Origin: Lachnospiraceae bacterium
Lineage (GTDB): Bacteria; Bacillota; Clostridia; Lachnospirales; Lachnospiraceae
DNA: 64,000 bases
NCBI GenBank assembly: GCA_015056865.1
Contig: SVFM01000002.1
Span: 129,791-193,790 of the forward strand
Reading direction: 5' to 3'
Shown: positions 1 to 9,023 of the stretch, piece by piece
Numbering within the stretch: position 1 is the first letter of the stretch
Layout: the number at the start of each line of letters is the position of its first letter
Notes under the pieces: generated by a model
The model's input: the letters and a program-made list of their open reading frames with translations, nothing else
Database searches by the model: none
What the model was told of the DNA's origin: nothing
Program-made: the position numbers and the translations under genes

Positions 1-492
1 AGGCCCTGTGGATGCCCTGTGCGCTGCAGGATTGGCAGGATTGTCAAACTGCCCCAGGATCACTGCGCCGGGAATGGAATCACGCAATTCCTCCGCCTTG
101 GCAATGGCTCCCTTCATCCCCTTTGCCCCTTCCGTCAGCACCAGCTTGGCACCATATGCCCCCAGCAAAGTACGCCGCTCCACACTCATGGTATCCGGCA
201 GTGTAAGAATCGCCTGATACCCCTTGGAGGCAGCTACCGCCGCCAAACCAATCCCTGTATTACCGGAAGTAGGCTCAATAATGGTTGCTCCAGGCTTTAA
301 AATTCCATTTCGCTCTCCATCCTCTATCATCTCCAGCGCCACCCTGTCCTTTACAGAACCGGCCGGGTTTAAATATTCCAATTTAGCAAGAAGGGATACC
401 CCTTTCGCCCCTATCCGTTTTGCATAACGATCTGCCTGCAAAAGCGGTGTATTTCCTATCAGCTCCAATGCACTCTTTTTGATATCAGCCAT
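1..492 (-). CDS. cysK: Cysteine synthase (O-acetylserine sulfhydrylase), N-terminal part
   Basis: PLP enzyme that makes L-cysteine from O-acetylserine and sulfide in the cytoplasm. The gene runs off the left edge; 164 codons are visible. Motifs seen: ELIGNTPLL near the N-terminus, the PLP-lysine motif PAGSVKDR, the phosphate/substrate loop TSGNTG, and GQFDNPANP near the edge, in the usual CysK order. The ATG at 492 is preferred over an in-frame ATG at 504 because GGAG lies 8 bases before it. A strong promoter lies just upstream. CysK and cystathionine beta-synthase-like paralogs share these motifs, but length and order fit CysK. Confidence 0.93.
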   Translation of the reverse strand, partial: MADIKKSALELIGNTPLLQADRYAKRIGAKGVSLLAKLEYLNPAGSVKDRVALEMIEDGERNGILKPGATIIEPTSGNTGIGLAAVAASKGYQAILTLPDTMSVERRTLLGAYGAKLVLTEGAKGMKGAIAKAEELRDSIPGAVILGQFDNPANPAAHRASTGP

Positions 493-535
493 AATATTCT
501 CCATTTCATATTGATTTACTAGGAATTCTGTTTTG

Positions 536-564
536 ATTATAACAACCCATATATTTGATGTCAA
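536..564 (-). promoter_or_regulatory. Promoter of cysK
   Basis: On the minus strand TTGACA (564-559) and TATAAT (541-536) are separated by exactly 17 bases: a perfect sigma-A consensus match about 45 bases before the cysK start. No S-box or T-box leader fits in the short leader. Confidence 0.85.
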
Positions 565-586
565 TACATGTGGAATCAAATTTATA

Positions 587-615
587 GTTACATCCGCTTT
601 GCATTGTGCTATACT
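587..615 (+). promoter_or_regulatory. Possible promoter of the GNAT gene
   Basis: GTTACA (587-592), 17-base spacer, TATACT (610-615), upstream of the acetyltransferase start at 661. The -35 box matches at only 4 of 6 positions. Confidence 0.4.
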
Positions 616-660
616 AAAGACAATCTTTGCAACACACCACTGACAGAAAGGCGATGTATC

Positions 661-1155
661 ATGGAAAAAGATCATATTTTCACATCCACACGCCTCACCT
701 TCCGGGGCATCAACGAGACAGACACCAAACTTTTGGTCAAATGGCGCTCTGACGAAACAGTGATACGATATTTTCGTAATCCTGTACCTGTCACCGAAGC
801 CGGACACACAAAATGGTACCGGGAATCCTATTCCTCCAATCCAAACCGATATGATTTTATCATTTTCGAAAAAAAATTCGGTCAGGCCATTGGCACTGTA
901 GGGGTCAATGACCTGAACCGGGAATCCGAATCCTGCGAAATATCATATATGATTGCCGAGTCCGCTTTTCAACGCAAAGGCTATGCAGTGGAAGCAATCG
1001 GCGCCATGATGGACTTCATGCTAACGGAAGATATCCGGCACTTTTTTGCCGAGATCCATTCGGATAATCTGGCCTCCATCCGAACCATAAAAAAACTGGG
1101 GTATGAAGCTTATACACAGCGCCCGCCGTTTCTCATTTACCACAAAGTGTACTAA
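661..1155 (+). CDS. GNAT family N-acetyltransferase (RimJ/RimL-like)
   Basis: Predicted acetyl-CoA-dependent N-acetyltransferase, 164 residues; the substrate cannot be read from sequence. N-terminal strand STRLTFRGINETD and the acetyl-CoA-binding segment around QRKGYAVEAIGAM follow the RimJ/RimL pattern, with SDNLASIRTIKKLGYE as the typical last helix-strand. The ATG at 661 follows a GAAAGG element; the longer open frame starting at 568 lacks one and includes the promoter. It is divergent from cysK and convergent with the racemase gene, so it is probably monocistronic. Confidence 0.85.
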   Translation: MEKDHIFTSTRLTFRGINETDTKLLVKWRSDETVIRYFRNPVPVTEAGHTKWYRESYSSNPNRYDFIIFEKKFGQAIGTVGVNDLNRESESCEISYMIAESAFQRKGYAVEAIGAMMDFMLTEDIRHFFAEIHSDNLASIRTIKKLGYEAYTQRPPFLIYHKVY

Positions 1156-1185
1156 GGGCTTTTCCTCACAAAGCGAAATGCTTTC

Positions 1186-2304
1186 TTATACCACCACTCG
1201 CTCCAGTCGGCCGCCCAGCCGGCTGAAGACTTCATTGGTAATGGTGCCACACCACCCGGCAAACTGCTCCCCTGAGATACTTTCCTGCCCGGACTTGCCG
1301 ATCAGCACCGCTTCATCACCCTGGGAAATATCAGAAACCTCTGTCACATCTACCAACATCTGATCCATGCACACTCTGCCTATGATAGGCGCCCTCTTTC
1401 CACGAATGAGAACATATCCGCGTCCGGCAATCTCCCGGAATACGCCATCTGCATAGCCAATGGAAAGGGCTGCGATCCTGGTATCTTCTCCGGCCCTAAA
1501 GACAAGGCCGTACCCTGCCCCTTCACCCTTATTGACCTTTCTCACACTCTGCACCCGGGTCTTTAGTTCCAACACCGGCAAAAGGGAAATGCCACTACTA
1601 TTCCAATCTCCCTCCTGACTAAGTAGCCCGTAAAGTGCAATGCCGGGGCGACAATAATCATACTGCAACCAGGGATAATTCAGCATCCCGTAGCTGCCCT
1701 GCAGATGCCTGGAAAATCCTTTGATCCCCTGCCTGTGCAGCCAGGCAGTCACCTGTTCAAAGCGCCCTATCTGCTCCAGAGTAAATGCCCTGTCTTTCTC
1801 CTTACAGCTGTCAGACACACACAGCTGTGAAAAAATCCCACCCACCCGGATACCGGGTGTCTGAAATATCTCTGCAATACGTTCTGCTTCCTCATAAGAA
1901 ACTCCCAACCTGTGCATTCCTGTATCAATTCCCACGTGTACCTTGAAGCCTCCGCCTACCCGCTGCAATTCATTGGCATATTCCCGGTCCACCAATGTCT
2001 GGGTAAGATCATAATCAAGCAGATCCTGAAACCTGGCCGGATAGGTATAGCCCAGCACCAGAATCAGGCCTTTTACCCCTGCCTTTCGCAGGCGTACCCC
2101 TTCTTCTGCGCAGGCCACACAATAATCCTCTATTCCCAGCTCAGTAAGCTTTTCTACCATAGGAAGCATCCCATGTCCATAGGCGTCTGCCTTTACTGCC
2201 GGCATCAATCTGCAGGTTTCCGGCACCAGGCTGCGCAGCTGTTCCACATTGTGCTGCAAATGATCCATATTTAATTCCACCCAGGCTCTGCTCTTTCCGC
2301 TCAT
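1186..2304 (-). CDS. VanT-type serine/alanine racemase, soluble half (VanTr-like)
   Basis: Fold-type III PLP racemase of 372 residues, the alanine racemase family. PLP lysine K38 lies in MPAVKADAYGHG, the second catalytic Tyr is in AGYGLVF, and RVCMDQ is present. The C-terminal motif reads TITNEV, with Asn357 where alanine racemases have Tyr (Tyr354 of Geobacillus Alr). Asn there is known from VanT serine racemases and from a Y354N mutant that gains serine racemization. It follows the membrane gene by one base and lies downstream of a VanG-like ligase, so D-Ser supply is the likely role. Known VanT is one membrane-racemase chain; the vanL operon has the same split. A housekeeping alanine racemase is the alternative. 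Confidence 0.82.
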   Translation of the reverse strand: MSGKSRAWVELNMDHLQHNVEQLRSLVPETCRLMPAVKADAYGHGMLPMVEKLTELGIEDYCVACAEEGVRLRKAGVKGLILVLGYTYPARFQDLLDYDLTQTLVDREYANELQRVGGGFKVHVGIDTGMHRLGVSYEEAERIAEIFQTPGIRVGGIFSQLCVSDSCKEKDRAFTLEQIGRFEQVTAWLHRQGIKGFSRHLQGSYGMLNYPWLQYDYCRPGIALYGLLSQEGDWNSSGISLLPVLELKTRVQSVRKVNKGEGAGYGLVFRAGEDTRIAALSIGYADGVFREIAGRGYVLIRGKRAPIIGRVCMDQMLVDVTEVSDISQGDEAVLIGKSGQESISGEQFAGWCGTITNEVFSRLGGRLERVVV

Positions 2305-2305
2305 A

Positions 2306-3346
2306 CTATTCCTTCCCTCTTCCTTTCCCCTGCCAATGCCTGATCCGCTCCACCAACAAGCAAATCACTGCGGATACACCTACACTGATGGCACATACTG
2401 CCAGGTAGTGCAACATGGTATTTTCTACTAAAACCTTTGTCAATCCTACCGTCCTTGCCATCCCGCGGACCAATATTATACAAAGAGGATGTAGCAAATA
2501 AATCCACAAAGACAATTCACGCCATTTTTTATCCATGGTCCCTTTTCTTTTATTGCTATGAGCGGCCCCGGAAAGCAGAATCGAAAACAAAAAGTACATG
2601 ACCAAAGGCAGCGCAAAATACATACTATTATGCCTCTGCCAGCCTTTTTCATAGGTCAGTGCTCCCTCTGTCAGCATCAGGAGCAACGATATTCCAAGTC
2701 CTATCAAATCCTTTGGCCAGTTCTGGCCTTTCTTTCTTCTGAATATCACGCCCATCCACAAAAACAGAGGAGCATAAAAAAGACCGTTTCTTGTATAATC
2801 GCTGATGGAAAATATCTGATCATAGAAATTCCTGCCTATATCTGTCCCCATCACCAACCCACCGTAGCTGTCCCCCAAAGTTCCAGCTATGTAAAGGATG
2901 GACACAAGGATACCACTTTGCAATTCACCACACAACCTGATCAAAGCCATTACGATCAAACATCCCAAAATGACTGCCGGAAAATACCACAGATGATAAA
3001 AGGTTCCATCTAAAAAAATATCCCGCAAAACTCCGGTGATTCCTCCTATCTGTTTACCGGCATACCAATTTACGGGCAGATAAAGGATTGTGGCAAAAGC
3101 ATACAAACGGATCATCTTGGCCACATAATTTCCCACCTGCCCCGGTGCACTCAGCACAAAATAACCTGCAACCATCAGGAAAAAGGGAACTGCAACCCGA
3201 AACAGACAATAGGTGATCAAATAATCCGCCGTCTCATTCACAACCATAAAAGGTCCGATATGTATTGCCACCACCATCAAGGCGGCAGCCAAGCGAAATC
3301 TATGGATCCACTGATTCTCTTTTCTGCTTTCCATCTCTCCTGTCAT
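2306..3346 (-). CDS. Membrane acyltransferase-3 domain protein, VanT membrane half (VanTm-like)
   Basis: Polytopic membrane protein (346 residues, about 10 hydrophobic segments) of the acyltransferase-3 family, with the family's N-terminal RLAAALMVVAIHIGPF segment. The same domain forms the N-terminal half of VanT serine racemases, where it is thought to aid serine uptake or membrane location. The start at 3346 has GGAG 10 bases upstream; a start at 3385 would overlap the ligase by 35 bases. The stop is one base before the racemase start and in another frame, so this is a genuine split, not one ORF with an in-frame stop. An O-acetyltransferase role cannot be excluded. Confidence 0.78.
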   Translation of the reverse strand: MTGEMESRKENQWIHRFRLAAALMVVAIHIGPFMVVNETADYLITYCLFRVAVPFFLMVAGYFVLSAPGQVGNYVAKMIRLYAFATILYLPVNWYAGKQIGGITGVLRDIFLDGTFYHLWYFPAVILGCLIVMALIRLCGELQSGILVSILYIAGTLGDSYGGLVMGTDIGRNFYDQIFSISDYTRNGLFYAPLFLWMGVIFRRKKGQNWPKDLIGLGISLLLMLTEGALTYEKGWQRHNSMYFALPLVMYFLFSILLSGAAHSNKRKGTMDKKWRELSLWIYLLHPLCIILVRGMARTVGLTKVLVENTMLHYLAVCAISVGVSAVICLLVERIRHWQGKGRGKE

Positions 3347-3350
3347 CTCT

Positions 3351-4406
3351 CTACATCTCCTGCAAAGTCTGTCCGATAAGATCATTTACGATTTGGGCAA
3401 ATCCCAGACCAATCCCCTTCATCATGTTAGGGAACCTGCTGTGGGAGGTAAAGCCCGGTATGGTATTGACCTCGTTAAAATAAATCTCTCCCGTAGGTGT
3501 CAAAAACATATCTACCCTGGAAAAGCCACTGCACCGCAGTGCCCGGTAAATGGTCCCTGCAGTCCTTTTAATCTCTTCTGCCTTCTGACTGCTTATCCGA
3601 GCCGGCACATGAATACTGGACGTCTTTAAAGTATATTTCTCTGTATAGTCAAAAAATCCCTCAGAAAGCTCAATTTCATCTACCACACCTATGGTCAGCT
3701 CCTCATCCCCCATCACAGCGCAGCCCACTTCGAAGCCCTCTATCATTTGCTCCATCAGGATCAAACTGTCATGCGCAAATGCCTCTTTCACCGCTTTTTC
3801 CAGTTCTGCCTCGCACATTACCTTGGTAATCCCGAAGGAAGAACCGGCTCTTAAAGGTTTTACAAAAACAGGATAGCCCAGTTCCTCAGCCAGCTCCTTT
3901 GCCTGCTCCTTCTCCTTGACTGTCAGTAGTACGGAGGCCGGAACTTTTACCCCCGCAGCGGCAGCCATCCGATGTGCCATATCCTTATCCATACAAAGGG
4001 CAGATGCCAGCACATTACATCCCACTATGGGAATCCCTGCCAGCTCCAACACCCCCTGCACGGTGCCATCCTCCCCATTTTTGCCGTGAAGCACAGGAAA
4101 AGCCGCATCCAACGATAGGGTTTTGATTCCTTCCTCTTCCCGGATCCAAAGGCCATGCAGCTGCCTGTCCGGAGACACAACAACCGGAACGCATCCGGAA
4201 TCCTCCTCCCAGGTATTCTCTAAGATCTTATCCGTTTGTCCCCGATATATCAGCCATTTCCCTTCTCTTGTGATACCGATCAGTACCGGTTCGTACTTCT
4301 CTCTATTTATATGCGTGATCACCGCATGTGCGGACTGTAAAGACACCCCATATTCCGAGGAGCATCCTCCGAACAAAACTGCTATTTTTTTCTTCTCTGT
4401 CTGCAT
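3351..4406 (-). CDS. VanG-like D-alanine:D-serine (or D-Ala) ligase
   Basis: ATP-grasp ligase of 351 residues joining D-Ala to a second D-amino acid for peptidoglycan precursors. Family motifs: FGGCSSEYGVSL (1-25 region), HGKNGEDGTVQG (107-118), GCNVLASALCMDK, and the metal-binding NEVNTIPGFTSHSRFPNMM end. The omega loop reads FFDYTEKYT (251-259). The E-K-Y triad extended in this way recalls VanC/E/G D-Ser ligases, and the whole sequence reads closer to VanG than to typical Ddl. It is first in a tight unit with VanT-like membrane and racemase genes. No VanXY, VanY, VanW or VanRS is in view, so it may be a cryptic or housekeeping relative. AGGGGG precedes the ATG. Confidence 0.85.
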   Translation of the reverse strand: MQTEKKKIAVLFGGCSSEYGVSLQSAHAVITHINREKYEPVLIGITREGKWLIYRGQTDKILENTWEEDSGCVPVVVSPDRQLHGLWIREEEGIKTLSLDAAFPVLHGKNGEDGTVQGVLELAGIPIVGCNVLASALCMDKDMAHRMAAAAGVKVPASVLLTVKEKEQAKELAEELGYPVFVKPLRAGSSFGITKVMCEAELEKAVKEAFAHDSLILMEQMIEGFEVGCAVMGDEELTIGVVDEIELSEGFFDYTEKYTLKTSSIHVPARISSQKAEEIKRTAGTIYRALRCSGFSRVDMFLTPTGEIYFNEVNTIPGFTSHSRFPNMMKGIGLGFAQIVNDLIGQTLQEM

Positions 4407-4563
4407 GATAAAAGCCCCCTTTTTCTATCTAATATATAGACTCCCATAAGCTTCTGAAGGTTACGGACATCTGATACCAGTGTAACAGACCTCCATTTGC
4501 TTTTCTTTAACATGAGATTGAGATTTTTTTAAGAATGTCTTAAATTTTTTCTTTCCTGAAATC

Positions 4564-4592
4564 TTGCATCACTCCACAACTTTCGCTATAAT
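4564..4592 (+). promoter_or_regulatory. Promoter of the DAHP synthase gene
   Basis: TTGCAT (4564-4569), 17-base spacer, TATAAT (4587-4592), about 40 bases before the start codon. The leader is too short for a T-box or attenuator, so control is more likely allosteric or at initiation. Confidence 0.75.
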
Positions 4593-4631
4593 AGTAAAAG
4601 CAAATTTATAGAAGAAAGAAGGTTTTCAACC

Positions 4632-5660
4632 ATGGCTTTTGAATTTATAAAAAAATTACCCACCCCCGAGGAGATCCGCCAGCAGCTTCCCCTTCCCGCC
4701 GAACTGGCAGAATTAAAAGTAAAAAGGGATGCTGAAATTCGAGACGTTCTCACCGGCAAGAGCAATAAATTTCTGGTGATCGTAGGACCCTGTTCTGCCG
4801 ACAATGAGGATGCCGTCTGCGACTATGTTAGCCGACTGGGCAAAGTAAACGAAAAGGTAAAGGACAGGCTTGTTCTGATTCCCAGAATCTACACCAACAA
4901 GCCCCGCACCACAGGAGACGGCTACAAGGGTATTGCCTCCCAGCCTGATCCGGAGAAAAAGCCCGACTTTCTGGCCGGATTGATCGCCCTTCGCAAAATG
5001 CAGATACGCGCTATCACAGAAAGCGGTCTGACTTCTGCGGACGAAATGCTCTATCCGGAAAATTGGCTCTATGTATCAGATCTTCTGTCTTACGTTGCCA
5101 TCGGAGCCCGCTCCGTGGAAGACCAGCTACACCGCCTGACCGTCAGCGGTTTTGATGTGGCTGCCGGTATGAAGAATCCTACCAGTGGCGATTTTGCCGT
5201 TATGCTTAATTCTGTATATGCTGCTCAGCACCCTCACTCCTTCACCTATCGGGGCTGGGAAGTAAATACCACCGGCAACGATCTGGCACACACCGTACTG
5301 CGCGGCGCAGTCAATAAGCATGGCAATTCCATCCCCAACTACCATTATGAGGATCTTAATTTCCTTCTGAATCTGTACAATGAACGTGATCTGAAGAATC
5401 CTGCCTGCATTATCGACTCCAACCACAGCAACTCCGATAAAAAATATGCACAGCAGATCCGCATTGTCAAAGAGGTCATGCACAGCCGCAAACTGAACCC
5501 GGACATCCACTCTCTGGTCAAGGGCGTTATGATCGAAAGCTACATCGAGGAAGGATGCCAGAAGGTAGGCGGAGGTGTGTACGGCAAATCCATTACCGAT
5601 CCCTGCCTGGGCTGGGCTGATACGGAAAAGTTGATTTATGATATTGCAGACTATGAATAA
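4632..5660 (+). CDS. aroF: 3-deoxy-7-phosphoheptulonate synthase (DAHP synthase, AroG/F/H class I)
   Basis: First step of the shikimate pathway: condenses phosphoenolpyruvate and erythrose-4-phosphate. The 342-residue sequence has the class I signature IVGPCSADNEDAV, the PEP-binding region RIYTNKPRTTGDGYKG, GMKNPTSGDFAVM, the metal/active-site DSNHSNSDKK, and the ending GVYGKSITDPCLGW. Length equals the feedback-regulated E. coli enzymes, whose N-terminal arm is present here; which aromatic amino acid inhibits it cannot be told, so the symbol is nominal. AGAAGG lies upstream of the ATG. A small gene follows after 14 bases. Confidence 0.94.
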   Translation: MAFEFIKKLPTPEEIRQQLPLPAELAELKVKRDAEIRDVLTGKSNKFLVIVGPCSADNEDAVCDYVSRLGKVNEKVKDRLVLIPRIYTNKPRTTGDGYKGIASQPDPEKKPDFLAGLIALRKMQIRAITESGLTSADEMLYPENWLYVSDLLSYVAIGARSVEDQLHRLTVSGFDVAAGMKNPTSGDFAVMLNSVYAAQHPHSFTYRGWEVNTTGNDLAHTVLRGAVNKHGNSIPNYHYEDLNFLLNLYNERDLKNPACIIDSNHSNSDKKYAQQIRIVKEVMHSRKLNPDIHSLVKGVMIESYIEEGCQKVGGGVYGKSITDPCLGWADTEKLIYDIADYE

Positions 5661-5674
5661 TAGGAGAACTGACT

Positions 5675-5848
5675 GTGAATCGTTTTGAATATGTTGTAGA
5701 AAATATAGACGGCGACTATGCCCACCTGCGCAGAACAGACGACCCCGATGCCGAATTGAAACTGGTGGCAAGGGCTCTCCTGCCCCCGGAGATCACTGAG
5801 GGCGCAGAATTGATCTATGAATGGATGCAGTACAGTATAAAAGAATAA
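5675..5848 (+). CDS. Small acidic protein of unknown function, 57 residues (GTG start)
   Basis: Not recognised with certainty. GTG at 5675 has AGGAG exactly 8 bases upstream, and the 57-codon frame ends at 5848, just before a strong terminator. The protein starts NRFEYVVENIDGDYAHLRR, then has ARALLPPEITEG and ends EWMQYSIKE. This strand-rich 'IDGDYA...LLP..I.EG' pattern faintly recalls DUF3006-type small proteins. It is 14 bases downstream of aroF and probably co-transcribed; a role linked to aromatic biosynthesis is only a guess. Confidence 0.72.
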   Translation: MNRFEYVVENIDGDYAHLRRTDDPDAELKLVARALLPPEITEGAELIYEWMQYSIKE

Positions 5849-5858
5849 AATTAATTTT

Positions 5859-5899
5859 AAAGGACATAGCAAATTTTTAGGCTATGTCCTTTCTTTTGA
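5859..5899 (+). terminator. Terminator of the aroF unit
   Basis: A perfect 12-bp stem (AAAGGACATAGC, 5859-5870, with its complement at 5881-5892) closes a 10-base AT-rich loop and is followed by CTTTTG. AT-rich flanks on both sides could also stop the convergent xerD transcript. Confidence 0.85.
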
Positions 5900-5937
5900 C
5901 AAATTTAATTATTAAGTTGAGGAGAATAAAAATACGC

Positions 5938-6822
5938 TCATCCTCTTGGATGTGCCTTCTCATACACTTCCCGGATGCGGCTATGATTCATGTTGGCATA
6001 AATCTGAGTGGTAGAAATATCCGAGTGCCCCAGCATTTCCTGCACACTCCTTAAGTCAGCACCGTTTTCCACCAGATGTGCCGCAAAGGAATGCCTGAGG
6101 GTATGAGGTGCGATCTCATCCTCTATACCGGCCTTCCGGGCATAATACTTGATCAGCTTCCAAAATCCCTGTCTGCTCATGGCACTGCCGGAACAATTGA
6201 CAAACAACAGCGGATCATTCTTATCCTGCAAAAGCGTCTCTCTGGCATCCTCCATATACTGAAGTAAGGCTTTCCTGGCCTGTTTCCCAAAAGGGATGAT
6301 TCGCTCCTTGTCAGCATCCCTGCAGACAATAAACCCCATTTGCAAATTTATGTCCATAATCCTTAACGAGATCAGTTCCGAAACACGGATCCCTGTGGCA
6401 TACAAAAGCTCTAACATGGCCTTGTCCCGACGTTCCTTCGGACTTGTACCGGAGGGTTGTTCCAACAACTTCACCACCTGCTTCGCACTCATGATCCCCG
6501 GTATCTTCTTTTCAATCTTGGGAGCACGCAGCACATCAGAGATATCTTCTGCCACCATACCCTCTCGAAACAAAAAATGATAAAAGGCCTTAATAGATGC
6601 AATATTTCTGGAAACTGTAGCAGGGGTAAATCCCTCCTTCTCCAGATAAAGCACATAAGAATTCAAATTGGTCTGTGTAACCCGCTTCATGTCCAAAACA
6701 TCCTGCGCTTGCAAAAAGGCTACAAACTTCTTAAGATCGCGCTGATATGACACCATGGTATTCTCAGACGCTTTCTTCACATTATGTAAATAAAAAACAA
6801 ACGCATCCAATGCTCTTTCCAT
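5938..6822 (-). CDS. xerD: Site-specific tyrosine recombinase XerD
   Basis: Tyrosine recombinase of 294 residues that resolves chromosome dimers at dif. The N-terminal SAM-like core-binding domain covers about residues 1-90. Catalytic residues are visible: Arg in ATGIRVSEL, Lys in the DADKERIIPFG hairpin, HTLRHSFAAHL, LGHSDISTTQIYAN with the terminal His and nucleophile Tyr. Length and the full R-K-H-R-H-Y set fit XerC/D, and the adjacent spoIIM gene is a Firmicutes arrangement for xerD. No integrase-type N-terminal arm or att-like repeat was seen, so a mobile-element integrase is unlikely. Confidence 0.9.
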   Translation of the reverse strand: MERALDAFVFYLHNVKKASENTMVSYQRDLKKFVAFLQAQDVLDMKRVTQTNLNSYVLYLEKEGFTPATVSRNIASIKAFYHFLFREGMVAEDISDVLRAPKIEKKIPGIMSAKQVVKLLEQPSGTSPKERRDKAMLELLYATGIRVSELISLRIMDINLQMGFIVCRDADKERIIPFGKQARKALLQYMEDARETLLQDKNDPLLFVNCSGSAMSRQGFWKLIKYYARKAGIEDEIAPHTLRHSFAAHLVENGADLRSVQEMLGHSDISTTQIYANMNHSRIREVYEKAHPRG

Positions 6823-6895
6823 GAAAAAATGAACCTTCTCTCTAAATCGTTAGAATTACATTATAATCAGAAAATCACGGAAAAGCAATCATAAT

Positions 6896-7507
6896 TTAAA
6901 AAATTTTTAACAATCCTATCACCAACATAGGATTTACATAACTTTCCAATACCGCTCCTATTATGACAACCACTGCTACTTTTGAAAAATGCAGGATCCA
7001 TTTTTGAATTTCCTGCCGTTTATTTCCGATGTATGTGCCGGATACCTTTCCCGGAAAGTAGATGCTCCTGCACAGCTCAGCCCCCTCATGCAGCAGTAAA
7101 ATCCATGCCGGCACGTAAAAAATATACTGTGGAAAAGCCATAACCACCATCAACACAATCCCCTTAATACCATAGCGCATAATGGAGACAGACAAGATCA
7201 TTCCCAAAGAACACCCCAGCCAACCTGCATAAGTATATACGGCAGCCACACCTAAATAGGTAGACGCCAGCAAAATAATTCCGATAACAAAGCCCAGCCT
7301 CTTTTTTAACACATATACCAAAAAACTACTGTTCTCCACAGACATATATTTCATTTGATACAGAGAAGACTCGTCCAACAGTCCAATCTTAGCCAAAAGA
7401 GAGCTTCCACCAGCATTAATGATAAATATGCCTAAAAGTACACCTGCCAAAAAAGCAGCTAGAAGCGGCACATTTCTATGGAACCTTATTGCACGAAAAA
7501 ACCTCAT
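6896..7507 (-). CDS. spoIIM: Stage II sporulation protein M-like membrane protein
   Basis: Integral membrane protein of 203 residues with about five hydrophobic helices, of the SpoIIM/DUF95 family. In sporulating Firmicutes SpoIIM works with SpoIID and SpoIIP to degrade septal peptidoglycan during engulfment. Seen here: LLAAFLAGVLLGIFIINAG at the N-terminus, a central GWLGCSLGMILSV helix, FPQYIFYVPAWILL, and a final helix with a short cytoplasmic tail. GAGGTG lies five bases before the ATG. Position beside xerD supports the name. Family members without a sporulation role exist. Confidence 0.83.
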   Translation of the reverse strand: MRFFRAIRFHRNVPLLAAFLAGVLLGIFIINAGGSSLLAKIGLLDESSLYQMKYMSVENSSFLVYVLKKRLGFVIGIILLASTYLGVAAVYTYAGWLGCSLGMILSVSIMRYGIKGIVLMVVMAFPQYIFYVPAWILLLHEGAELCRSIYFPGKVSGTYIGNKRQEIQKWILHFSKVAVVVIIGAVLESYVNPMLVIGLLKIF

Positions 7508-7583
7508 GTATTCACCTCAATGGTATTATTTCAGAACTTCCCTACCATTTTATGATGAAAACATGAGGTTCATGCCACTGGAC

Positions 7584-8864
7584 TTACTGTTCCAGAAGCT
7601 TATTTACACTTACCAGTTTTACACAGAGAACAAACAAGTCTGTTGCCTGTGCAAGTTCTTCCGGCACGGGCAGTGAAGGTGCCAGACGAATATTACTGTC
7701 TTTCGGATCTTTGCCATAAGGATAAGTAGCTCCTGCACCGGTCAGGACAACACCTGCCTCTTTACATCTGGCCACAGTCTCCTTGGCACATCCATCCATG
7801 GTCTCAAAGGAAATGAAATAACCACCCTTAGGAGTCGTCCAGCTACCGATCCCCAGACCACCCAATTCTCTTTGCAGAACTTCCAGCACCGCTTCAAACT
7901 TAGGTCTCATAATATCGGCATGCTTTTTCATATGTGCGCGAACACCATTCACATCCTTGAAATATTTAACGTGTCTCAGCTGATTGACCTTATCATGACT
8001 GATGGTTTGGATAGTCATAGATTTTTTCACAAAATCCAGGTTCTTCTTGGATGCCGCCATAGCTGAGATACCTGCTCCGGCAAAACTGATCTTGGATGTG
8101 GAAGTAAACTCAAAAACCATATCCGGATTTCCGGCCTTTTCACATTCACTTAAGATCTCTAACAACTGATCCCCTTCCTCATAGAGGTCGTGAATAATAT
8201 AGGCGTTGTCCCAGTAAATCCTAAAATCTTCTGCCGCCGGTTTCAACGCCGCAAATCTTTTTACCGTTGCATCACTGTAAGTATATCCCTGAGGATTGGA
8301 ATACTTCGGAACGCACCAGATACCCTTTACTGCGGGATCATTATTCACATACTCTTCCACCATGTCCATATCCGGTCCATCTGCTGTCATAGGTATGGTG
8401 ATCATTTCGATACCAAAATGCTGGGTGATCGCAAAATGTCTGTCATATCCCGGTGCAGGGCAAAGAAATTTCACATTCTCCAATTTGCACCAGGGAGTGC
8501 TGCCGCACACACCGTGTGTCATGGAACGAGATACAGTATCGTACATAATGGTAAGACTGGCATTGCCAAATACGATCACGTTGTCCGCCGGTACACCCAT
8601 GATCTCTCCCATAAATGCCTTTGCCTCCGGAATACCATCCATCAAGCCATAGTTTCTGCAATCCATGCCGCCCTCTGTCTTTACCTGACTGTGGCTGTCA
8701 AGCACATCCATCATATCCATTGCCAGATCCAACTGAACAGATGCGGGCTTGCCTCTGGACATATCCAGTTTTAACCCTTTTGCCTTGGCCTCCTCATACT
8801 GTTTTTCCAATTCAGCCTTTAATACCTGCAATTCTTCTTTGCTCATCGCCTTATACGACTTCAT
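7584..8864 (-). CDS. Aspartate aminotransferase-like PLP enzyme (MocR-type aminotransferase subfamily)
   Basis: Fold-type I aminotransferase of 426 residues, of the branch related to PF12897 and the corynebacterial AspT. It probably interconverts aspartate/oxaloacetate and glutamate/2-oxoglutarate. Visible motifs: LDMSRGKP near residue 35, CPAPGYDRHF, PKYSNPQGYTYS, YWDNAY, and the PLP lysine about position 258 in TSTSKISFAGAG. There is no N-terminal winged helix, so it is an enzyme rather than a MocR regulator. GGAG is close to the ATG. Substrate preference is inferred from the family. Confidence 0.85.
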   Translation of the reverse strand: MKSYKAMSKEELQVLKAELEKQYEEAKAKGLKLDMSRGKPASVQLDLAMDMMDVLDSHSQVKTEGGMDCRNYGLMDGIPEAKAFMGEIMGVPADNVIVFGNASLTIMYDTVSRSMTHGVCGSTPWCKLENVKFLCPAPGYDRHFAITQHFGIEMITIPMTADGPDMDMVEEYVNNDPAVKGIWCVPKYSNPQGYTYSDATVKRFAALKPAAEDFRIYWDNAYIIHDLYEEGDQLLEILSECEKAGNPDMVFEFTSTSKISFAGAGISAMAASKKNLDFVKKSMTIQTISHDKVNQLRHVKYFKDVNGVRAHMKKHADIMRPKFEAVLEVLQRELGGLGIGSWTTPKGGYFISFETMDGCAKETVARCKEAGVVLTGAGATYPYGKDPKDSNIRLAPSLPVPEELAQATDLFVLCVKLVSVNKLLEQ

Positions 8865-9023
8865 CTCACTCCACCATCCTTATTTCATTTTGTACATTCT
8901 ACTATAATATGATTTATAACACAATACCCAATTCTATTTTTTTGCTGTAGTATCAAATAAAAGAACTGCCGGGAAACAATTCATTCCATTTCCGCAGCAG
9001 CCCCTCATATCTACTATTCTGTT

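What the first reader, a model, noticed from the sequence alone, without database searches (positions are those of the whole stretch)
1186..4406. VanG-like ligase with a split VanT: a D-Ala-D-Ser unit lacking VanXY and VanRS
Seen: a ligase with omega loop FFDYTEKYT, a membrane acyltransferase-3 gene and a racemase gene packed with 4-base and 1-base gaps. The racemase has Asn357 in TITNEV where alanine racemases have Tyr354, the residue whose change to Asn confers serine racemization. Known: vanG and vanL operons carry these functions, and vanL splits VanT into two genes. Missing here are the precursor-removing VanXY/VanY and the two-component regulators. Inference: D-Ser-ended precursors may be part of normal wall synthesis, or the unit is cryptic.
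Basis: partly seen in the sequence, partly recalled or inferred. Interest (0 to 1): 0.78.

Follow-up and report, generated by a model that had tools for sequence, protein, structure and literature searches.

The report
D-serine wall-precursor unit lacking its peptidase
A gut bacterium carries genes that would end cell-wall building blocks in D-serine, as some vancomycin-resistance operons do, but without the peptidase and sensor those operons use; many related gut bacteria carry similarly pared-down sets, so it probably does something other than classic resistance.

Summary
Window 1186-4406 (minus strand) is a three-gene operon: a VanG-type D-Ala:D-Ser ligase (562 bits, cut-off 495), the membrane half of VanT, and a VanT-type serine racemase (513, cut-off 460) with Asn357 where the genome's own alanine racemase has Tyr. 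The genome also has an ordinary Ddl and Alr. Three VanXY/VanY/VanX peptidase families give no match genome-wide, and no response regulator reaches the VanR cut-off (281 against 350).

It is not a one-off. VanXY is absent at 50 of 106 scorable VanG-type units, with at least 18 changes on the ligase tree, and at 34 of 59 units fetched from the window's genus. VanXY-less units show purifying selection (ligase median dN/dS 0.079, 11 pairs; 0.102 in 6 VanXY-bearing pairs), against cryptic decay. Most likely the unit makes D-Ala-D-Ser alongside D-Ala-D-Ala and is kept for something other than inducible high-level glycopeptide resistance. Enzyme activity, precursors and expression are untested. New variant of a known kind.

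The parts
3351..4406 (-). VanG-type D-Ala:D-Ser ligase, 351 aa
   Evidence: NCBIfam NF000091 VanG 562.1 bits (cut-off 495); best solved relative 4fu0 (that it is VanG is recalled)
3630..3656 (-). omega-loop codons FFDYTEKYT (residues 251-259)
   Evidence: F252 in 112 of 114 VanG-type rows; own Ddl has Y
2306..3385 (-). membrane acyltransferase-3 half of VanT, 359 aa from the first ATG (alternative start 3346)
   Evidence: PF01757 94.5 bits, cut-off 31; NF033132 positions 1-329 254.6 bits (cut-off 900, for fused VanT), NF000033 vanT-L-mem 176.7 bits (cut-off 675)
1186..2304 (-). VanT-type serine racemase catalytic subunit, 372 aa
   Evidence: NF033131 vanT-G-Cterm 512.8 bits (cut-off 460); best solved relative 4ecl, named serine racemase
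1234..1236 (-). codon of Asn357
   Evidence: N in 85 of 96 VanT-type rows, H 3, X 1, gap 7; own Alr has Y
4407..4631 (.). divergent intergenic region, probable promoter of the operon; a weak -10-like TATATT lies upstream of the ligase
   Evidence: promoter matches at chance level; no Rfam match up to E 1 in 1-9000
4632..5660 (+). flanking gene: 3-deoxy-7-phosphoheptulonate synthase, also divergent beside the unit in G205
   Evidence: TIGR00034 246.8 bits; neighbour in G205 read by eye
568..1155 (+). flanking convergent GNAT acetyltransferase
   Evidence: PF13302 101.6 bits

Best explanation
The racemase turns L-Ser into D-Ser, possibly helped by the separate membrane acyltransferase-3 protein. 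The VanG-type ligase joins D-Ala to D-Ser, and MurF adds the dipeptide to the wall precursor in competition with D-Ala-D-Ala from the genome's own Ddl. Because no VanXY/VanY removes D-Ala-D-Ala and no VanRS switches the genes, the cell would carry a mixed pool of D-Ala- and D-Ser-ended precursors under some other control. The unit descends from VanG-type operons that lost the peptidase and sensor many times, and it is retained for a role other than inducible high-level glycopeptide resistance. Shown: gene content, family membership, conserved residues, recurrence and purifying selection in the class. Inferred: the chemistry, the mixed pool, the regulation, the direction (loss) and the benefit.
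For: Ligase and racemase pass VanG and VanT-G cut-offs. D243, F252 and R324 occur in 114/114, 112/114 and 112/112 (2 gaps) rows, against I, Y and L in the own Ddl, alike in VanXY-less and VanXY-bearing units. Asn357 is conserved in both groups. A second Ddl (before a MurF-like gene) and a second Alr are present. Zero matches to PF02557, PF13539 and PF01427. Best regulator 281 bits against the VanR cut-off of 350. VanXY absent at 50 of 106 units with at least 18 changes. In 57 of 59 VanXY-bearing rows the VanXY match starts in one slot, 1.0-1.3 kb from the ligase start, which favours repeated loss. All 34 genus genomes with a VanXY-less unit show at least two ligase-family matches. Ligase dN/dS median 0.079 in 11 VanXY-less pairs.
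Against: No enzyme, expression or precursor data. In the window's own three-species clade dS is saturated, so selection there is inferred only from intact genes at 71-76% ligase identity. The link between losing VanXY and losing VanRS is not significant once the tree is used (median p 0.625). Of the 34 VanXY-less genus genomes 27 have a PF02557 match elsewhere, mostly in a frame of about 350-410 aa, 3 of them weak or partial, so lack of clean-up is not general. The own genome has S11 carboxypeptidases at four places. The own genome's best regulator has an 83% identical counterpart that lies 4.7 kb from the ligase start in two VanXY-less relatives (L202, L209), so some regulatory tie is not excluded.
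Confidence: 0.57

Rival explanations
1. A working low-level glycopeptide-resistance unit: the ligase out-competes Ddl, or another carboxypeptidase (S11 type, or a VanY-like protein elsewhere in relatives) does the clean-up, so enough termini end in D-Ser to lower drug binding.
For: Own genome has S11 carboxypeptidases; 27 of 34 VanXY-less genus genomes have some PF02557 match elsewhere; [quoted passage not shown]
Against: Another paper states that ligase, VanXYG and VanTG are strictly required for VanG resistance (PMC4405338, passage); no VanR at the curated cut-off; own genome has no PF02557 protein.
Confidence: 0.2
2. A cryptic relic of a resistance operon that lost VanXY and VanRS and is on its way out.
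For: Absence of genes said to be needed for VanG resistance; units in relatives range from complete to ligase plus racemase only; cryptic vanG-like operons are described in C. difficile (PMC4405338, passage).
Against: Ligase dN/dS 0.030-0.128 in 11 VanXY-less pairs, not higher than in 6 VanXY-bearing pairs; all three genes intact in the window and in two same-genus relatives at 71-76% ligase identity.
Confidence: 0.12
3. Both enzymes act mainly on D-Ala and serve as a second Ddl and second Alr.
For: VanT-type and Alr-type racemases are related; the racemase also passes TIGR00492 alr (302.5 against 168), and the ligase passes general Ddl subfamily models such as TIGR01205 (325.6 against 245.65).
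Against: Asn357 and the Van-type ligase residues are conserved in the class and differ from the own Alr and Ddl; scores favour the VanG and VanT-G models.
Confidence: 0.08
4. VanXY and VanRS exist but lie in an assembly gap.
For: 38 contigs, 97.8% complete.
Against: The operon is closed on both sides by unrelated genes; G205 shows the same unit and a shared neighbour.
Confidence: 0.03

Closest known systems
VanG operon (Enterococcus faecalis BM4518; C. difficile vanG cluster)
   Same: VanG-type ligase and VanT-type serine racemase; ligase first and VanT last, as in vanG relatives with VanXY taken out
   Different: No VanXY or VanY in the genome and no VanR at cut-off; no VanS near the unit; VanT split in two genes; VanU and VanW were not searched for; a Ddl gene is present too
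VanL operon (split VanT: VanTm and VanTr)
   Same: VanT as separate membrane and racemase proteins; the VanL membrane and catalytic models both match below their cut-offs (176.7/675 and 270.1/750)
   Different: Ligase scores 295 bits to VanL (cut-off 750) and 562 to VanG; no VanXY. That the split belongs to vanL is recalled; a review's figure legend names vanTm and vanTr without saying in which operon (PMC11597547, passages)
VanC/VanE/VanN operons
   Same: D-Ala-D-Ser chemistry expected
   Different: Ligase far below their cut-offs (341/650, 319/700, 304/700); that they carry VanXY is recalled
Housekeeping Ddl and Alr
   Same: Same enzyme families
   Different: Own Ddl and Alr are separate genes and differ at the specificity positions

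Membership tests
VanG-type D-Ala-D-Ser operon | VanG ligase | tested here: met
   562.1 bits against 495; with the VanG-type rows of the trees
VanG-type D-Ala-D-Ser operon | VanT serine racemase | tested here: met
   512.8 bits against 460, Asn357; but as a separate catalytic subunit
VanG-type D-Ala-D-Ser operon | VanXY peptidase | tested here: not met
   PF02557, PF13539, PF01427: 0 matches in the genome
VanG-type D-Ala-D-Ser operon | VanR/VanS (VanU) regulation | tested here: not met
   VanR: best 281 bits against 350; three VanRs beside vanG-type units score 363, 393 and 404. VanS looked for only near the unit; VanU not tested
VanG-type D-Ala-D-Ser operon | D-Ser ligation and glycopeptide resistance | not testable with these tools
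   needs enzymes and precursor analysis
VanL-type operon | split VanTm and VanTr | tested here: met
   two ORFs with a 1-base gap
VanL-type operon | VanL ligase | tested here: not met
   295 bits against 750
Housekeeping Ddl | clusters with Ddl, Tyr in omega loop | tested here: not met
   Phe252; outside the Ddl rows in the trees

The most novel reading that the evidence does not exclude
In Acetatifactor and other Lachnospiraceae, making D-Ala-D-Ser beside D-Ala-D-Ala is a resident branch of wall synthesis rather than drug resistance: the ligase-VanT core has been freed many times from its peptidase and its glycopeptide sensor, sits in different chromosomal settings, and is kept by selection, so these cells run walls with mixed stem-peptide ends.
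Probability: 0.35. Interest if true: 0.75.

Novelty: new variant of a known kind. Interest (0 to 1): 0.5.

Why it matters
Resistance-gene annotation treats vanG and vanT as resistance genes. If a large share of gut Clostridia keep them without VanXY or VanRS under purifying selection, such calls overstate resistance, and a non-resistance use of D-Ala-D-Ser becomes testable. The units also separate the acyltransferase-3 half of VanT, whose function a 2025 paper says has not been considered (PMC12423673, passage), from the racemase.

Tried and rejected
Rejected: the idea that this is a lone oddity. Rejected with a reserve: that a VanR is encoded elsewhere. The best regulator (C21) lies below the VanR cut-off and sits in a lepB/rnhB/yraN-like block (names by eye) that holds no van genes here. 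Its counterparts in L202 and L209 are 83% identical; there the same kind of block also holds the VanXY-less unit, with two other genes between the racemase and the regulator (read in L202), so I take it as a resident regulator of that block. Led nowhere: promoter and terminator scans at chance level; no Rfam match; inverted repeats unremarkable; upstream alignment of three relatives shows no clear conserved site; the correlation of VanXY and VanRS loss is not significant on the tree. The VanG structure paper was not held, so the meaning of D243, F252 and R324 is recalled. The VanA-type chain aligned (3se7) has the same Asp, Phe and Arg, so these residues separate Van ligases from Ddl, not D-Ser from D-Lac; the EKY stretch of the loop matches 4fu0 and not 3se7. 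Structure prediction was not run.
Full report
What is there. Window 1186-4406 holds three intact minus-strand ORFs. The first gene in reading order is a 351-aa ligase that passes the NCBIfam VanG model (562.1 bits, cut-off 495) and stays far below the cut-offs of the VanC, VanE, VanL, VanN and D-Lac ligase models listed; it also passes general Ddl subfamily models. The second is a 359-aa acyltransferase-3 membrane protein that matches the membrane half of VanT, below the curated cut-offs of those models. The third is a 372-aa racemase that passes the VanT-G catalytic-subunit model (512.8, cut-off 460) and the general alr model. The unit lies between a divergent DAHP synthase (4632-5660) and a convergent GNAT gene (568-1155), so no further gene seems to belong to the operon.

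Specificity residues. Asn357 of the racemase aligns with Tyr in the genome's own alanine racemase. The position is N in 85 of 96 VanT-type rows, H in 3, X in 1, with 7 gaps, alike in VanXY-bearing and VanXY-less units. In the ligase, D243, F252 and R324 are found in 114/114, 112/114 and 112/112 (2 gaps) rows, against I, Y and L in the own Ddl. The meaning of these residues is recalled; the VanG structure paper was not held. All this predicts D-Ser use but does not show it.

The genome. G000 has 2.53 Mb in 38 contigs and is 97.8% complete. It encodes an ordinary Ddl immediately before a MurF-like gene (C10; L038) and an ordinary Alr (C17; L039) (the MurF name is read from sequence by eye). PF02557 (VanY/VanXY), PF13539 and PF01427 (VanX) give no match. 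Of 20 genomes searched together it is the only one with no PF02557 match; of 58 further same-genus genomes 6 have none. The best VanR-model match is 281 bits, under the cut-off of 350; the three VanRs tested from units with VanRS score 363, 393 and 404. S11-family carboxypeptidases are present at four places, five matches.

Relatives. 62 of 101 same-genus genomes, the window's included, hold a VanG-type ligase of 53% identity or more; three of these (G216, G221, G239) show it in pieces or in part (counted). Of 150 family genomes, 20 including the own have one at 56% or more, and one more (G070) in two pieces. A contig of a same-genus genome (G248) is identical over 16 kb to a record titled uncultured Acetatifactor sp., and one of a same-family genome (G001) to a record titled Lachnospiraceae bacterium, so the window's genus is probably Acetatifactor. 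The two nearest, G205 (76%) and G174 (71%), carry the same three-gene split unit with no VanXY. G205 also has no VanRS in the stretch scanned and shares the DAHP synthase neighbour; the G174 contig ends 416 bases upstream, so VanRS cannot be scored there. The acyltransferase ORF of G174 is intact.

A class, not an oddity. Among 59 units fetched from the genus (window included; 59 of the 62 genomes), VanXY is absent at 34, present at 23 and undetermined at 2. On a ligase tree, 106 rows could be scored for VanXY: 56 with, 50 without, at least 19 changes. Of 95 scored for VanRS, 40 have it and 55 do not. Of 89 scored for both, 31 lack both. VanT is fused in 61 and split in 24 of 85, with at least 6 changes. 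Dropping one row with an in-frame stop gives at least 18, 17 and 6 changes for VanXY, VanRS and VanT. VanXY was called by tblastn with two VanXY queries at E 1e-5. At the 58 further same-genus genomes the PF02557 matches agree: each VanXY-bearing unit has one at the unit and none of the VanXY-less units does. One VanXY tested scores below the NCBIfam VanXY cut-offs (255 against 500, 205 against 250), so 'VanXY' here means VanXY-like by similarity. Absence of VanRS means absence within about 4.5 kb upstream and 6.5 kb downstream, by similarity to one VanRS pair, so distant pairs such as that of L068 are scored as absent. In 57 of 59 VanXY-bearing rows the match starts in one slot 1.0-1.3 kb from the ligase start, so repeated loss is likelier than repeated insertion; the counts alone cannot give the direction, and the tree's root rests on long outgroup branches (warning). 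The window sits in a 7-row clade (support 96/94) in which every unit has split VanT; one has VanXY (L043) and two have VanRS but no VanXY (L058, L060).

Is it decaying? For independent pairs at 80-99% ligase identity, the ligase dN/dS median is 0.079 (0.030-0.128, 11 pairs) in VanXY-less units and 0.102 (0.067-0.172, 6 pairs) in VanXY-bearing ones (p 0.18). The racemase gives 0.098 (9 pairs) against 0.159 (5), and the acyltransferase 0.153 (11) against 0.173 (4). Two further VanXY-less ratios could not be computed because dS was saturated (one ligase, one racemase), and two of the VanXY-less pairs do have VanRS (L181/L192 and L178/L197). So the class is under purifying selection with no sign of relaxation. 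For the window's own clade dS is saturated or near it, so no ratio is given.

Clean-up elsewhere. All 34 genus genomes with a VanXY-less unit have at least two ligase-family matches, so an ordinary Ddl is very likely kept beside VanG; this was read in sequence only for the window's genome. 27 of the 34 have some PF02557 match away from the unit, mostly in a frame of about 350-410 aa that many VanXY-bearing genomes also have; three of these are weak or partial (G174, G230, G154), and one genome (G187) has two VanXY-sized frames elsewhere. Seven, the window's included, have none. So lack of any VanY-type peptidase is true for this genome but not for the class.

How it most likely works. D-Ser from the racemase and D-Ala feed the VanG-type ligase; MurF uses the product beside D-Ala-D-Ala. 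Without VanXY or VanRS the expected result is a mixed precursor pool under some other control, not inducible resistance. A VanG paper says ligase, VanXYG and VanTG are strictly required for resistance (PMC4405338, passages); [quoted passage not shown] Incomplete sets have been seen in passing: PMC4405338 mentions a partial vanG operon in Ruminococcus bromii, and the MAG table passages seen in PMC12366002 list vanG and vanT, without a vanXY row, for one bin (coassembly.1). A description of VanXY-less units as a conserved class was not found in the searches (listings; passages read of seven papers: PMC12004154, PMC11326576, PMC4405338, PMC8431993, PMC12423673, PMC12366002, PMC11597547). The library is open-access only.

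The acyltransferase half. It keeps invariant or near-invariant positions (H42 88/88, R63 88/89, D172 89/89, E240 88/88, H252 88/88, H299 88/88) over all 89 rows, which mix split and fused, VanXY-bearing and VanXY-less units. That suggests a working role of its own, yet some units with a racemase have no detectable acyltransferase half.

Verdict.

Noticed in passing
L042 (G038), VanXY matches at about +1055..1474 and +3542..3853 from the ligase start: VanXY lies in two pieces separated by about 2 kb of other DNA, a possible loss in progress.
   Followed up: no
L063, L078, L084, L087, L088: Racemase present but no acyltransferase-3 half detected near the ligase, so the racemase may be soluble there.
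   Followed up: no
L202 and L171/L160: VanXY-less units sit in different chromosomal settings (lepB/rnhB/yraN-like block; after a DNA polymerase III delta'-like gene; names by eye), so the core unit has moved or been acquired more than once.
   Followed up: partly
L077 (Pseudoflavonifractor sp. An184): VanG-type ligase with an in-frame stop beside VanXY and a fused VanT.
   Followed up: partly
L138 (OY725857.1, recorded as a 335-kb Subdoligranulum plasmid): A vanG-vanXY-vanT set on a large circular record.
   Followed up: no
L060 downstream of the racemase: A VanRS-like pair follows the VanXY-less operon instead of preceding it.
   Followed up: no
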